In this document: piece by piece, positions 4,478-17,825 of the stretch | Position numbering within the stretch: position 1 is the stretch's first letter | How the letters are laid out: each line of letters opens with the position of its first letter | Virus record (IMG/VR): IMGVR_UViG_3300043313_002603 | Coordinates: 1-32,033 of that record | DNA length: 32,033 bases | Reading direction: 5' to 3' (one strand) | Source: a virus | Program-made: the position numbers and the translations under genes | The notes under the pieces: generated by a model | Seen by the model: the letters and a program-made list of their open reading frames with translations, nothing else | Database searches by the model: none | What the model was told of the DNA's origin: nothing

Positions 4478-5235
4478 CGGTCACCGCCGACTGGCAGGTC
4501 GAACTGGGCGGGGTGACCATTGGTGCCGGGACCGGCTATGTCATTACCGGGCCGATCACCGGGCTCGGCTCGCCGGTGCCCCGCAGCGCCGACAGTGAAC
4601 GTGGCATGAGCCCCGGCGATGTGGCCGGCGTCGACGTCGACGCCCGCCGGGTCCTGACCATCCAGGTCGGCGTCGACGAGACCGACGCCGCGTCGGCGAT
4701 GACATCGTTCGAGGTGTTGAAGTCGGCGTGGGCATCATCGTCGGTCGACGTCGCCCTCGACATCCGTCTCCCCGGGTTCGCCTCGGTGGTACGCCGGTTC
4801 TACGGGAGACCCCGGGGGATGGACGTGGAGCTGGCCTCGCTCCACACCGGCTGGATCGACGTGCTCGCCACGTTCGAGGCGCTCGACCCGTACGGGTACG
4901 GCCCGGAGCAGACGGTCACACTGGTCGACGGGGACACCGTCATCGCCTACCCGGGGTCGGCGCCGTCGGACCGGTACCGGATCGAGCTGACCTCGGTGAC
5001 CGAGGCGTACGTCACCCTCGACACGGCCGGGCCCGGCCCGGCGCTCACCCTCGTCGACGTCCCGTACCCGGCGACCCTCGACGGTCGGACCCGGACCATC
5101 GTCGACGACACCGGTGTCGACCTGTACAGCCATCTCGCCCCCGGATCGGGGTGGCCGGTCCTCACCCCCGGGACCAATAGTTTCACGCTCGACGGGGCGT
5201 CGGGGACGCTCACCTACCGGCCCGGCTACCGGTGA
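4474..5235 (+). CDS. Distal tail protein (Dit-like) / minor tail protein
   Basis: This 253-residue protein follows the tape measure directly, with GTG overlapping its TGA. It has the look of siphovirus distal tail proteins: an N-terminal beta-rich half (VELGGVTIGAGTGYVITGPITG, then RRVLTIQVGVDE) for hexameric ring formation, a conserved region around DIRLPGFASVVRRFYGRP, and a second beta domain from about residue 150 (DGDTVIAYPGSAPSDRYRIELTS is shared with this family in style). Dit rings join the tube to the tip and receptor-binding proteins. Position between the tape measure and a Gp37-like tail protein supports the call. Confidence 0.8.
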   Translation: MTVTADWQVELGGVTIGAGTGYVITGPITGLGSPVPRSADSERGMSPGDVAGVDVDARRVLTIQVGVDETDAASAMTSFEVLKSAWASSSVDVALDIRLPGFASVVRRFYGRPRGMDVELASLHTGWIDVLATFEALDPYGYGPEQTVTLVDGDTVIAYPGSAPSDRYRIELTSVTEAYVTLDTAGPGPALTLVDVPYPATLDGRTRTIVDDTGVDLYSHLAPGSGWPVLTPGTNSFTLDGASGTLTYRPGYR

Positions 5236-11996: not shown

Positions 11997-12010
11997 AGTC
12001 AACCAGTTGA
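11997..12010. promoter_or_regulatory. GTCAACC site and dyad between leftward cassette and integrase
   Basis: GTCAACCAGTTG here nearly repeats the palindromic part of motif copy 4; TCAAC and GTTGA form an inverted pair. On the minus strand it reads TTGACT, a good -35 for the leftward cassette, though no clear -10 follows. On the plus strand TACCGT (12021-12026) fits TANNNT and ends seven bases before the integrase ATG, suggesting a leaderless integrase mRNA. Confidence 0.4.
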
Positions 12011-12033
12011 TTATTCGCTGTACCGTTGCAGGC

Positions 12034-13482
12034 ATGACCAGCACCTTCAGCTCCTCCGCGGCCCAAGCGATCGTCTCGGCGGTGATCCGGGTCGCCCTGT
12101 ACGCCCGGATCTCGGAGGACGACAAGAAGGACGTCCTCGGGGTGAAGCGTCAGATCCACGACGGCGGCGAGATGGCCGTGGCCAAGGGCTGGCAGGTGGC
12201 CGGCGAGTACATCGACAACGACCTTCGAGCATCCGGTGATGACCTGTGGCGGCCCGAGTTCGAGCGGCTCCTGGAGGACGTTCGTGCCGGCCAGATCGAC
12301 GCCATCATCGCCACCGAGCCCGAACGGATCACCCGGCGGCCGAAGGAGCTGGAGAAGATCCTCGAGGTCTGCGAAGAGGCCGGCGTCAAGTACATCGCTT
12401 ACGTCCACGAGTCCGGCGTCGACATCGGCACGGGCGACGGCATCCTCATGGCGAGGTTCCGGGCTGCGATCGCCGCTCACGAGGTCGCCAAGATCAAGCG
12501 ACGGGTGAAGGACAAGAAGAACGAGCTGGCCCGCGACGGCAAGCCCTCCGGCGGCGGCCGCCGGCCGTTCGGCTATACCGCCGACTACTCGGCGAGCATC
12601 AAGGCTGAGGCCGCGATGATCGAAGACGCAGCCGCCCGAGTCCTCGACGGCGAGTCGATGCGGTCGATCTGCGCCGGGTGGAACGCCGCCGGGCAGCGCA
12701 CCTCGACGGGGGGCGAGTGGCGGCCGAGCTGCCTGCGGTCGATCCTCAAGTCCGGCAGGATCGCTGGACTCCGAGAGCACCATGGCGTCGTCACTCGCAA
12801 GGCGGTGTGGCCGGCGATCATCGACCGAGACACGCATGATCAGCTCGTCGCTCTGCTCGACGCACCCGGCCGACGCCGCGGCAAGATCCTGGGGCACAAC
12901 CTCCTCACCGGTCTGCTCGTATGCGGTCGACCGGGTTGTGACGGCAAGCTTGTGTCGAGCAGCAACAACGGCCACCGCGCCTACGCCTGTCGGACAGATC
13001 CCGGCCGGGCGCACGGTTGCAACAAGCTCGTGATCAAGGCCGAACCGCTCGAGGACTGGATCCGCGACGCTGCCCTGGAACGCCTGGACGAGAACCTGCT
13101 CGCGGAGCTGAAGGCGCAACGGGCCGGGGCCATCGACAAGGCAGACCTCGACAGGATCGACGAGCTCGAGGCTCACATCAGCCTGCTGAACCGGATGCTC
13201 GGCAGCCGCAAGCTCAGCGAGGACGACTACAACGAGGCCCGCGTCGAGGCCGACCCCGAGCTGAAGGCGGCGTACCGGAAGGTGGAACGCCAGCGCACCC
13301 GGACAGTGATCGACGCCTTTCTCGACGATCCCCGCGCTGTCCCGGAGCGATGGGAAGCGGCGAGCCTGCCAGTGAAGCGAGCCGTGCTCGCGGCGATCCT
13401 CAAGAAGATCACCGTCCGCCCAGCGGTGCCTGGCCGGGCCCGCTTCGACGACGACCGCATCGATCCTGACTGGCGCTACTGA
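12034..13482 (+). CDS. int: Serine integrase (large serine recombinase)
   Basis: A 482-residue site-specific recombinase that would integrate the phage at attP/attB without needing host factors. Residues 17-27 read VIRVALYARIS, with S27 as the expected nucleophile of the resolvase domain, followed by ERITRRPKELEKILE. A recombinase DNA-binding domain follows (GGRRPFGYTAD). A zinc ribbon lies near residue 300 (CGRPGCDGK to YACRTDPGRAHGC). A coiled-coil-rich C-terminus contains the KADLDRIDELEAHISLLNRML stretch. The ATG at 12034 is preferred to TTG 12007. A terminator follows. Directionality would need a separate factor; none is recognised here. Confidence 0.95.
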   Translation: MTSTFSSSAAQAIVSAVIRVALYARISEDDKKDVLGVKRQIHDGGEMAVAKGWQVAGEYIDNDLRASGDDLWRPEFERLLEDVRAGQIDAIIATEPERITRRPKELEKILEVCEEAGVKYIAYVHESGVDIGTGDGILMARFRAAIAAHEVAKIKRRVKDKKNELARDGKPSGGGRRPFGYTADYSASIKAEAAMIEDAAARVLDGESMRSICAGWNAAGQRTSTGGEWRPSCLRSILKSGRIAGLREHHGVVTRKAVWPAIIDRDTHDQLVALLDAPGRRRGKILGHNLLTGLLVCGRPGCDGKLVSSSNNGHRAYACRTDPGRAHGCNKLVIKAEPLEDWIRDAALERLDENLLAELKAQRAGAIDKADLDRIDELEAHISLLNRMLGSRKLSEDDYNEARVEADPELKAAYRKVERQRTRTVIDAFLDDPRAVPERWEAASLPVKRAVLAAILKKITVRPAVPGRARFDDDRIDPDWRY

Positions 13483-13811: not shown

Positions 13812-14030
13812 ATGCAGAAATTCAGCGGGAAGGAACTCCGCCGCCGACGAGAAATGAGCGGCAAACGCCTCGAGCTCATGGCTGTCGAACTGGGCCGGAG
13901 TCGTGACTCGATCGCCTCCTACGAGGCCGGCCGTCGGAACCCTCCGCTCCGCGTCGTCGCCGAACTGGCCGCCAACCTCGGCTGCGAGCCCGGCGCCTTC
14001 TTCACCGAGGAGGCCGACGATGTCGCCTGA
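13812..14030 (+). CDS. XRE/Cro-type HTH regulator
   Basis: A 72-residue single-domain DNA-binding protein. GKELRRRREMSGKRLELMAVELGRSRDSIASYEAGRRNPPLRVVAELAANLGCEPGAFF follows the XRE pattern, with the recognition helix around SRDSIASYEAG and the closing helix VVAELAANLG. Its size and gene position beside the integrase suit a phage Cro or a small repressor. ATG 13812 has GAGG about 11 bases upstream. An operator-like dyad overlaps the candidate promoter in front of it, so autoregulation is plausible. Which lysis-lysogeny role it has cannot be told from the sequence. Confidence 0.85.
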   Translation: MQKFSGKELRRRREMSGKRLELMAVELGRSRDSIASYEAGRRNPPLRVVAELAANLGCEPGAFFTEEADDVA

Positions 14031-14111
14031 AGCGTGCCTCGCGCCGGTCGCCACTGGGCGTCCAGGAAAACCTCCGCTCCGCCTTGTCGCCCCAAAGGAA
14101 CTGTGCACAAA

Positions 14112-14137
14112 GTGGACGTCTAACCACGTTTCGTCCA
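14112..14137. promoter_or_regulatory. Operator-like dyad before the second HTH gene
   Basis: TGGACG (14113-14118) and CGTCCA (14132-14137) form an inverted repeat, with a nested GTGG/CCAC pair, in a locally AT-richer stretch. It lies 30 bases before ATG 14167. It may bind one of the two neighbouring HTH proteins. If translation starts at 14020 instead, the dyad is inside the coding region. Confidence 0.35.
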
Positions 14138-14166
14138 AAACCGGCGATACGAGCAAGGTGAGCAAC

Positions 14167-14538
14167 ATGCCCGAGCAGGACCCCGCACCGAAACGACCGG
14201 GCACCACCGACCCACGCAAAAAGGCGGACCCCCCCCCCCGCTGTCTTGATCAAGTAGCCATCGATGCGTACCTGCGGCGCAACGGGCCGTGGGCGCGGCA
14301 CTGTGGAAGCGCCGTCAAGGCCCGTCGGGAACAGCTTGGACTGACCGTCATCGAGGTCGCCCGTACCTGCAACATCGGGCCACCGACGCTGTACAAGATC
14401 GAGGGCGGGTCGATGGTGCCGAGCGACGCGGTCCGAGCGCTCCTCGCCTACAGCCTCGACATCGAGCCCGAGTCTCTCTGGGCCTTCCCGTCTCGGCTGG
14501 AGATCGAGCTGATCTCCGCCGCCAGAGCGTCGAAGTGA
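14167..14538 (+). CDS. HTH regulator with poly-C tract in its coding region
   Basis: A 123-residue protein from ATG 14167, which has AAGG upstream; an in-frame ATG at 14020, overlapping the previous stop, would add 49 poorly ordered residues. The C-terminal part is an XRE-like domain (SAVKARREQLGLTVIEVAR, TLYKIEGGSMVPSDAVRALLAY). The N-terminal linker is Pro/Lys-rich. A run of 11 C residues (14229-14239) encodes PPP and the first base of the next Arg codon, before the DNA-binding domain. A one-base slip there would remove the HTH, so this gene could switch on and off. It could be the immunity repressor or an activator. Confidence 0.7.
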   Translation: MPEQDPAPKRPGTTDPRKKADPPPRCLDQVAIDAYLRRNGPWARHCGSAVKARREQLGLTVIEVARTCNIGPPTLYKIEGGSMVPSDAVRALLAYSLDIEPESLWAFPSRLEIELISAARASK

Positions 14539-15181: not shown

Positions 15182-15802
15182 ATGACTGACCAGATCCATA
15201 TCGACCGCATCGCCTCGGAGACCATCCAGGTCCCGATCGTCGGCACCATGCCGCTGATCGTCCACAACTTCTCCGACAAGTCGAAGCGTCAGATGCTCGA
15301 CGCCCAGCAGGGCCGGAAAAAGCCGAAGGAGACCCGCGACCCGGAGGCCGAGTACGAGGCCGCGTTCTACCGGACGAAAGACGGCTACGGGTTCCCGGTC
15401 ACCGCGTTCAAGGCAGCGACCGTCGGCGCCGCCCGCTTCTACGGCAAGGACATCAACATGACGTCGCTGCGCCAGTTCCTGTTCATGCACGGCGAGCTGT
15501 CCGAGAAGGATGCGCAGGCGCTGGTGCCGATCATCGGTGAGCCGACCATGCGAGAGGACATCGTCCGCCTCGGCGGCGCCTCCCGGTCGGCGGACCTCCG
15601 CTACCGGCCGATGTTCAGCGAGTGGTCGACGGTGCTGACGGTCACCTTCGTCACCTCGAGCCTGAGCAGGAGCAGCGTCCTGTCGTTGATCGACGCCGGC
15701 GGGCTCGGTATCGGCGTCGGCGAGTGGCGGCCAGAAAAGAGGGGCGAGTTCGGGACCTTCGCCGTCGACGGCACCCGCGACGTCGAGGTGATCGAACGAT
15801 GA
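15182..15802 (+). CDS. Conserved phage protein at the head of the recombination operon
   Basis: A 206-residue protein. ATG 15182 follows AAGAAGG. I recognise the type from many phages: MPLIVHNFSDKSKRQML early, DPEAEYEAAFYRTKDGYGFPVTAFKAA next, then GEPTMREDIVRLGG, RYRPMFSEW and a glycine-rich GIGVGEWRPEKRGEFG near the end. The strand-rich layout with a late Gly-rich loop is reminiscent of RAMP/Cas7-like folds, but this is an impression that needs a structure search. Its place before exonuclease and RecT genes suggests a DNA-processing role. Pentamer array 1 begins right at its stop. Confidence 0.7.
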   Translation: MTDQIHIDRIASETIQVPIVGTMPLIVHNFSDKSKRQMLDAQQGRKKPKETRDPEAEYEAAFYRTKDGYGFPVTAFKAATVGAARFYGKDINMTSLRQFLFMHGELSEKDAQALVPIIGEPTMREDIVRLGGASRSADLRYRPMFSEWSTVLTVTFVTSSLSRSSVLSLIDAGGLGIGVGEWRPEKRGEFGTFAVDGTRDVEVIER

Positions 15803-16686
15803 GCACGGCAGGCACGGCTAGGCGTGGTATGCCAGGTCTCGGCTTGGCTCGGCAGGGCAGGGCAGGCAAGGCGCGGCTTGGCTTAGCTTGGCCCGTCCGG
15901 GCGTGGCGTGGCTCGGCAGGCATGGTGCGGCTGGTCCTCGCATGGAGCGGCTGGGTGCGGCATGGTGAGGTCGGGCAAGGCTCGGCGAGGCAGGCCAGGC
16001 TTGGCTTGGTACGGCGTGGTGGGGCTGGTTGGGGCACGGCAGGCATGGCACGGCTCGGCCCGGCCTGGCCGGGCAGGGTCCGGCAGCGCCTGGCATGGCA
16101 GGCAAGGCGCGGCGCGGCAAGTCGCGGTGCGGTTCGGCAAGGCGTGGCAGGCAAGGCGTGGCAAGGCCCGGCTCGGCGAGGCCGGGCTTGGCGTGTCTTG
16201 GCTTGGCGTGGCCCGGCAGGCGTGGCTTGGCTCGGCACGGCTAGGCGGGGCGGGGCTCGGCCAGGCTCGGCGTGGCACGGCAGGCTAGGCGCGGCGAGGC
16301 CCGGCACGTCGGGGTGTGGCGAGGTCTGGCATGGCTCGGCAGGCAGGGCTCGGCCGGGCACGTCGTGGCAAGGCATGGCCCGGTCCGGCAGGCAGGGTTC
16401 GGAGCGGCTGGGCAGGGCCGGGCAAGGCTCGGCGCGGCAGGGCGAGTCCTGGCAAGGCTGGGCATGGCAGGCAAGGCGCGGCTCGGCCAGGCGCGACTGG
16501 GCACGGTCGGGCCCGGCGCGGCAGGGTACGGCAGGCACGGCTAGGCATGGCGCGACTGGGCAGGGCTTGGTTTGTCCGGGCAGGGCAGTCTGGGCAGGGC
16601 CTGGTTCGGCCTGGCAGGGCCCGGCGCGGCCGGGCACGGCACGGCTGCGTGCGGCATGTCACGGGGCTGAGGGGGTGGTCGCGTGA
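15799..16686 (+). CDS. Open reading frame made of the pentamer array (295 residues), translation uncertain
   Basis: ATG 15799 overlaps the upstream TGA and the TGA at 16684-16686 overlaps the next GTG, so the frame is open from junction to junction. The predicted product is low-complexity and rich in Ala, Arg, Gly, Trp, Gln and Leu, with recurring 5-residue patterns such as GKARLGLAW. This follows from reading a 5-base repeat in triplets. The same DNA is also open on the minus strand, so openness alone is weak evidence. Either the array is translated as a basic repetitive protein, or it is a DNA or RNA element placed at a coupled junction. Confidence 0.35.
   Translation: MSTAGTARRGMPGLGLARQGRAGKARLGLAWPVRAWRGSAGMVRLVLAWSGWVRHGEVGQGSARQARLGLVRRGGAGWGTAGMARLGPAWPGRVRQRLAWQARRGAASRGAVRQGVAGKAWQGPARRGRAWRVLAWRGPAGVAWLGTARRGGARPGSAWHGRLGAARPGTSGCGEVWHGSAGRARPGTSWQGMARSGRQGSERLGRAGQGSARQGESWQGWAWQARRGSARRDWARSGPARQGTAGTARHGATGQGLVCPGRAVWAGPGSAWQGPARPGTARLRAACHGAEGVVA
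15807..16664 (+). repeat. Pentamer array 1: 160 degenerate CNNGG units with 14 four-base units
   Basis: From the C at 15809 to 16664 the sequence divides without remainder into five-base units of form CNNGG, mostly with two free bases, and 14 four-base units. Thirteen of these are CAGG, seen as GGCAGGC starting at 15807, 15861, 15915, 15989, 16038, 16097, 16146, 16215, 16279, 16338, 16387, 16466 and 16530. One is CAGT (GGCAGTC at 16584). The intervals are 54, 54, 74, 49, 59, 49, 69, 64, 59, 49, 79, 64 and 54, all equal to 4 modulo 5. The plus strand is G-rich. No function is known to me. Confidence 0.9.
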
Positions 16687-17105
16687 GTCTGCGCGATCAC
16701 CTCCAGCACATCTACTCCGAGCGCGGCATGTTGACGCCGGCCATCGTGGTGGACGAGGCCCGGCCGCCGGCGTCGCCGCTGCACGACAGGTTCGACTGGG
16801 ACAACGAGTCGGCTGGTGAGGCGTGGCGGCGTGTGCAGGCGCAGCAGCTGATCCGGTCGGTGCGGGTGGTGTACCGGGAGCCAACGGAGACCGATCCGGG
16901 TGAGTCGGTGCGGGCGTGGCACGCGGTCCGGCAGCCGTCGGGGCACGTGTACGAGCCGGCCGAGAAGGTCGCTGGCGACGAGCTCCTGTCGCGCATCGTC
17001 CTGAAGGACATGGAGCGGGAGTGGAAGCAGTTGCACCGTCGCTTCGGTCACTTCGTCGAGTTCGTCGACCTGGTCCGGGGCGACCTGGGCAAGGAGGCGT
17101 CATGA
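16683..17105 (+). CDS. Hypothetical protein of the phage recombination operon, 140 residues
   Basis: GTG 16683 overlaps the stop of the array ORF. The protein begins SLRDHLQHIYSERGMLTP, then PASPLHDRFDWDNESAGEAWRR and AQQLIRSVRVVYREP. It continues with SVRAWHAVRQPSGHVYEP and ends helical (MEREWKQLHRRFGHFVEFVDLV). This pattern recurs in phages next to exonuclease or RecT-type genes, but I know no assigned activity. The Trp/Arg-rich helices could contact DNA or a partner recombinase. The next gene overlaps it as ATGA. Confidence 0.7.
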   Translation: MSLRDHLQHIYSERGMLTPAIVVDEARPPASPLHDRFDWDNESAGEAWRRVQAQQLIRSVRVVYREPTETDPGESVRAWHAVRQPSGHVYEPAEKVAGDELLSRIVLKDMEREWKQLHRRFGHFVEFVDLVRGDLGKEAS

Positions 17106-17744: not shown

Positions 17745-17825
17745 GGCAGGCACGGAGGGGCAAGGCACGGCGGGGTCTGGCTCGTCATGGCACGGCGAGG
17801 CCGGGCCAGGCAGGGCACGGCAGGC
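17745..17825 (+). repeat. Pentamer array 2: one block of 14 units between two CAGG units
   Basis: GGCAGGC occurs at 17745 and 17819, 74 bases apart, which is 14 five-base units plus one four-base unit and again 4 modulo 5. The block opens like array 1: GGCAGGCACGG begins eight bases after the A of an ATGA junction in both. A 38-codon ORF (17737-17853) runs through it, overlapping the upstream stop and the next start as ATGA at both ends, as for array 1. Confidence 0.85.

What the first reader, a model, noticed from the sequence alone, without database searches (positions are those of the whole stretch)
15807..16664. Long degenerate pentanucleotide array (CNNGG) inside a phage recombination operon
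Read directly, about 860 bases divide exactly into 160 five-base units of form CNNGG plus 14 four-base units, with two nearly free positions per unit. Its composition and strand asymmetry are unlike the flanking genes. It is not a CRISPR array, a microsatellite with identical units, or ordinary coding sequence. It sits just before a YqaJ/RecT pair. I know of no described function for such an array, though repetitive proteins of this composition may exist in databases as hypotheticals.
Basis: seen in the sequence. Interest (0 to 1): 0.92.

Follow-up and report, generated by a model that had tools for sequence, protein, structure and literature searches.

The report
VIPR guide-RNA array in actinobacterial phage
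The odd five-base array is a bank of about 14 guide RNAs of a VIPR system (an RNA-guided, CRISPR-like weapon phages use on each other, first described in 2026), and its first guide spells a sequence found, across all searched viral contigs, only in the same weapon's protein gene of a close rival phage.

Summary
The array is real: 15807-16664 is 160 five-base units plus 14 four-base units, with a strong period-5 signal. It is the guide-RNA array of a VIPR system (PMC13142463, 2026: Vipr, a ~20 kD RAMP protein, plus vrRNAs of GGY/NN repeats that read DNA as NN with one skipped base). ORF 15182-15802 is the Vipr: it matches the solved SUSP1 Vipr (PDB 36pp, E 1.4e-11) and folds like Cas7/Csm3 RAMPs. 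The array is 14 guides of 9-15 units, each opened by a GGCA tetramer. Gene 16683-17105 is the likely accessory (vap), found in 109 of 127 vipr loci. A single-guide array lies at 17749-17823. Arrays and vipr co-occur reciprocally; RecT/YqaJ adjacency is incidental. Decoded with the 1-nt skip rule, guide 1 has one exact match in all IMG/VR contigs: the vipr gene of a sibling phage, in frame, skip base on the wobble position, at a site where the window's own vipr differs. Across 876 guides, significant matches appear almost only with the 1-nt skip and are enriched in rival vipr genes. Likely function: silencing rival phages, including their VIPR. Transcription, processing and repression are inferred; only one of 15 guides has an identified target.

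The parts
15182..15802 (+). vipr: 206-aa Vipr protein, RAMP fold
   Evidence: Same PHROG as SUSP1 Vipr; PDB 36pp E 1.4e-11; Csm3/Cas7 fold
15807..16664 (+). vrRNA array: 14 guides of 9-15 GGYNN units, each preceded by a GGCA tetramer
15811..15860 (+). Guide 1 (AC TA GT AT AG TC TT TC AG AG): first nine units match the sibling phage's vipr gene exactly with 1-nt skip
16683..17105 (+). Likely vap: 140-aa accessory protein, PHROG 15946
   Evidence: Present in 109 of 127 vipr loci
17749..17823 (+). Second, single-guide array of 15 units between later operon genes; conserved in position in the sibling
15799..16686 (+). Open frame running through the array, overlapping the vipr stop and the vap start; probably incidental
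   Evidence: 0 stops observed, 2.2 expected after NN shuffling, P(0)=0.07; 70 of 101 arrays have no open + frame

Best explanation
The array is the guide bank of a VIPR (Viral Interference Programmable Repeat) system. Transcripts from 15807-16664 are bound by the 15182-15802 Vipr protein, which probably polymerises along them with the GGY triplets held by protein. Each GGCA-to-GGCA segment is one guide, whose NN pairs read one DNA strand as NN-skip-NN-skip. Binding silences the target, and targets include the vipr genes of rival phages. The 16683-17105 protein is the accessory factor. Shown here: anatomy, Vipr homology and fold, co-occurrence, the skip-1 code in natural matches, and the guide 1 target. 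Inferred: transcription, processing at or near GGCA, DNA binding and repression.
For: Vipr identity: PDB 36pp SUSP1 Vipr at E 1.4e-11, hhalign 1e-12 and 1e-20 to SUSP1 and LESphi2 Vipr, Csm3/Cas7 fold. SUSP1 itself shows GGYNN arrays flanking its vipr. Association is reciprocal: 76/80 vipr loci have an array; 63/80 loci fetched by array pattern have vipr within 3 kb on the same strand, and 70/71 control terminase loci have neither while the other has both. Code: 876 guides against 5.5 Mb (both strands) give 9 matches at E<0.01 with 1-nt skip, 0 at skips 0, 2, 3, and 1 with shuffled guides. Against 123 vipr genes: 7 at E<0.003, all skip-1 and all with the skip on the wobble base, against 0 at other skips and 0.2 shuffled; 5 of the 7 are the first guide of an array, against 17% of guides overall. 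vap genes as negative control show no excess. Guide 1: the unique exact match in viral contigs is the sibling's vipr.
Against: No RNA data exist for this phage. Only 1 of 15 guides has an identified target; three other guides scanned in IMG/VR gave only chance-level matches and a fourth gave none. The per-guide 3' tail described for type II vrRNAs is absent between guides. An 18-base gapped pattern is expected to hit such a collection about once by chance, so the guide 1 result rests on where the hit falls.
Confidence: 0.93

Rival explanations
1. The array encodes a repetitive protein (the open frame 15799-16686), translated between vipr and the next gene.
For: An ATG-initiated frame is open through the whole array and overlaps the vipr stop and the next gene's start; annotators called a CDS in the UmaThurman array.
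Against: 7% of NN shuffles leave that frame open; 70 of 101 arrays of at least 200 bp have no open + frame; stops total 1108 against 1276 expected. The tetramers shift the reading frame at every guide.
Confidence: 0.03
2. The array is a recombination or replication element bound by RecT or the YqaJ exonuclease.
For: It lies about 2 kb upstream of a YqaJ/RecT pair.
Against: Neighbours that recur are vipr and vap; close RecT/YqaJ homologues appear in 2 of 80 vipr loci and 5 of 80 array-pattern loci (diverged recombinases could be missed). It does not explain skip-1 matches to vipr genes.
Confidence: 0.02
3. It is a VIPR array, but its main use is regulation of the phage's own or host genes, not attack on rivals.
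For: 14 of 15 guides have no identified target; the second array is conserved in position and mostly in sequence between siblings, as an endogenous regulator would be. Guide 5 matches the window itself at 17/20, not significant over 15 guides.
Against: The identified target is a rival vipr and self-matches are at chance level. The published analysis finds rival-phage and prophage targets (PMC13142463).
Confidence: 0.12

Closest known systems
VIPR of Escherichia phage SUSP1 (type II; PMC13142463, PDB 36pp)
   Same: Homologous Vipr (same PHROG 4652), GGY/NN repeats, guide length 9-16 units, phage-encoded, 1-nt skip code in natural matches, small accessory gene next to vipr
   Different: SUSP1 has four separate ~100-nt vrRNAs, each with a structured 3' tail, and vap1 (PHROG 5926). 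Here 14 guides abut with only a GGCA tetramer between them and no tail in between, and the accessory gene is an unrelated family by profile comparison (PHROG 15946)
Pseudomonas phage LESphi2 VIPR (OQ594955)
   Same: Homologous Vipr (hhalign 1e-20), GGYNN units next to vipr
   Different: Three separate short arrays, each followed by a distinct ~60-nt segment; vap1-type accessory
VIPR-like loci of Gordonia phages UmaThurman/ODay and Mycobacterium phages such as Brocalys
   Same: Vipr 48-64% identical, contiguous GGCA-delimited array, PHROG 15946 accessory
   Different: Shorter arrays (31-62 units); in Brocalys the array precedes vipr; vipr and vap are annotated only as hypothetical proteins
CRISPR-Cas class 1 (Csm3/Cas7)
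   Same: RAMP fold of the guide-binding subunit; tandem guide bank
   Different: No identical repeats and spacers; repeats of 5 bases with 2 variable; noncontiguous pairing as described for VIPR

Membership tests
VIPR | Small Vipr protein with RAMP fold, homologous to known Vipr | tested here: met
VIPR | Guides of about 9-16 YNNGG (GGY/NN) repeats with hypervariable NN, next to vipr | tested here: met
   14 guides of 9-15 units; array starts 5 bp after the vipr stop and ends just before vap
VIPR | Encoded in a phage or mobile element | tested here: met
   Window is a virus record with terminase, RecE-like and RecT genes
VIPR | Target reading by NN with a 1-nt skip | tested here: met
   Statistically, in natural matches; not biochemically
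VIPR | Accessory vap gene beside vipr | tested here: met
   16683-17105, in 109/127 vipr loci; a winged-helix-like fold is only suggestive, and which published vap it is was not checked
VIPR | vrRNA transcribed and bound by Vipr | not testable with these tools
   needs RNA sequencing and pull-down
VIPR type II (SUSP1/P. fulva) | Invariant structured 3' tail on every vrRNA | tested here: not met
   Guides abut directly; vap also differs
Any other of the seven published VIPR types | Type by Vipr phylogeny, array architecture and vap | not testable with these tools
   Type definitions are in supplementary figures and data that were not readable here
CRISPR array | Identical repeats of tens of bases separated by unique spacers | tested here: not met
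   Whole array parses into five-base units and GGCA tetramers

The most novel reading that the evidence does not exclude
These tail-less, GGCA-delimited arrays are an ordered memory: new guides enter at one end (beside vipr in this window), and the first guide is often an anti-VIPR guide aimed at the rival's vipr gene, read codon by codon with the wobble base ignored. Vipr genes would then change at targeted sites: the window and sibling vipr differ at 14/26 bases in the target site against 47/592 elsewhere.
Probability: 0.2. Interest if true: 0.9.

Novelty: new member of a known kind. Interest (0 to 1): 0.66.

Why it matters
VIPR was described in 2026 and is proposed as a forerunner of CRISPR. 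This locus is an unannotated example, probably from an actinobacterial phage, whose family's natural guides support the 1-nt skip code in a clade that differs from the tested type II systems. It gives a concrete rival-phage target (the sibling's vipr) and shows that guides recurrently aim at rival vipr genes. Related loci in phages of M. smegmatis and Gordonia offer tractable laboratory models.

Tried and rejected
Repetitive-protein reading: rejected on stop-codon statistics. RecT/YqaJ-linked element: rejected on co-occurrence. Rfam: no match. Pfam, NCBIfam and PADLOC: no family for Vipr or vap. IMG/VR scans with parts of guides 6, 7 and 8 gave only chance-level hits; guide 13 gave none, and its 15/18 match to vap genes is not significant against controls. 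A common hairpin tail after the array: 29% of arrays have a strong fold after the end versus 17% before the start, with no shared structure established. Relation of the accessory protein to SUSP1 vap1: none found by profile comparison. Supplementary figures of the VIPR paper could not be read, so no type was assigned.

Full report
Observation. The array at 15807-16664 is real and far above chance. Lag-5 identity is 0.586 against 0.334 +/- 0.015 in dinucleotide shuffles. It parses into 160 five-base and 14 four-base units. In the natural register the unit is GGY-NN (mostly GGC, then GGT, then GTC), and the tetramer is GGCA. The GGCA tetramers cut the array into 14 segments of 9-15 units. A second, single-segment array of 15 units lies at 17749-17823. 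The window is itself a whole virus record.

Identification. A literature search for pentanucleotide repeats near RecT led to PMC13142463 (bioRxiv 2026), which describes VIPR. It comprises a ~20 kD RAMP protein, Vipr, with guide RNAs (vrRNAs) of 9-16 YNNGG repeats. Their NN letters recognise double-stranded DNA with one skipped base between dinucleotides, and the system acts between phages. The ORF directly before the array, 15182-15802, belongs to the same PHROG as SUSP1 Vipr. Its profile matches the solved SUSP1 Vipr, PDB 36pp, at E 1.4e-11. Profile comparison gives 1e-12 to the SUSP1 protein and 1e-20 to the Pseudomonas LESphi2 protein. Its AlphaFold model (pLDDT 85.8) matches Csm3/Cas7 RAMPs: Foldseek E 8e-7, prob 1.00; VIA Z 10.8, rmsd 3.2, 142 residues. 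The detector used here also finds GGYNN arrays flanking the vipr of SUSP1.

Co-occurrence. Of 80 IMG/VR loci fetched by the Vipr protein, 76 carry an array, nearly always on the same strand and mostly within about 2 kb. Conversely, of 80 loci fetched by array pattern alone, 63 encode Vipr, all within 3 kb and on the same strand; most of the rest have the array near the edge of the fetched stretch. Of 71 terminase loci, 70 have neither and one has both. A 140-aa gene family (window 16683-17105) accompanies vipr in 109 of 127 loci, with arrays in three slots: before vipr, between the two genes, or after. It is probably the vap. Its predicted fold is confident, but structural matches are weak and winged-helix-like, and it is unrelated by profile to SUSP1 vap1. 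Close YqaJ/RecT homologues are not consistently near.

Code and targets. Guides from all arrays were decoded as NN with 0-3 skipped bases and compared with 5.5 Mb (both strands) of related phages and prophages, arrays masked. At E<0.01 there are 9 matches with a 1-nt skip, none with 0, 2 or 3, and 1 with shuffled guides. Restricting to 123 vipr genes gives 7 matches at E<0.003. All are skip-1 and have the skipped base on the codon wobble position, against none at other skips and 0.2 for shuffled guides. Five of the seven are the first guide of an array, against 17% of guides overall. vap genes treated the same way show no excess. Several guides spell conserved Vipr motifs codon by codon (EDMVRVGM; EKKGDFGTF), so one guide can match many rivals.

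The window's own guide 1 (AC TA GT AT AG TC TT TC AG) matches the vipr gene of sibling phage IMGVR_UViG_3300043313_001987 at 18 of 18 letters, in frame. A scan of the whole viral collection gave that gene as the only exact match. Two other patterns of this size gave 3 and 0 hits, so the weight lies in the hit being the closest known sibling's vipr, in phase. The window's own vipr matches only 11 of 18. The two vipr genes differ at 14 of 26 bases in the site against 47 of 592 elsewhere (Fisher p 7e-9). Outgroups do not settle which phage changed. Pairing does not continue past the GGCA, so each GGCA-delimited segment behaves as one guide. The sibling is about 83-97% identical over much of the window but has a 44%-identical terminase, as might be expected of competitors. 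The two arrays share one identical guide, one partly identical guide and, with four changed dinucleotides, the second array; otherwise they differ.

Coding. One frame runs open through the window array and overlaps both neighbouring genes, but 7% of NN shuffles keep it open, and 70 of 101 arrays have no open + frame. The array is therefore best read as non-coding.

Conclusion. This is a member of the VIPR kind, not type II, with a compact array lacking tails between guides. The published type list mentions staggered arrays with overlapping vrRNAs, which may be this architecture, but that could not be checked. Steps shown: sequence anatomy, homology, fold, co-occurrence, skip-1 matching. Steps inferred: transcription, processing, binding and repression. 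Fourteen of the 15 guides remain without an identified target.

Noticed in passing
L025 10676-14649: A GGYNN array of about 4 kb (794 units) between vipr and vap; L050 has one of about 2.9 kb.
   Followed up: partly
L090 (Pseudomonas phage LESphi2) 5591-5885: Three separate GGYNN arrays, each followed by a distinct downstream segment, ahead of an unannotated Vipr: an SUSP1-like VIPR in a P. aeruginosa prophage.
   Followed up: partly
L009/L113 versus window: Sibling phage similar to the window over much of its length but with a strongly different large terminase (44% identity).
   Followed up: no
Downstream ends of arrays in L029, L034, L035, L048, L179: Very stable hairpins directly after the array (z -6 to -8), possibly terminators or a terminal tail.
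   Followed up: partly
L013 array, guide at 5210: A guide matching the integrase gene of Mycobacterium phage Brocalys at 25/28 letters with 1-nt skip (E 4.5e-5).
   Followed up: no
window 12007-13482 and 13812-14538: A large ORF that looks like a serine recombinase (by eye), followed by two ORFs, at least one a helix-turn-helix regulator, upstream of the vipr operon.
   Followed up: no
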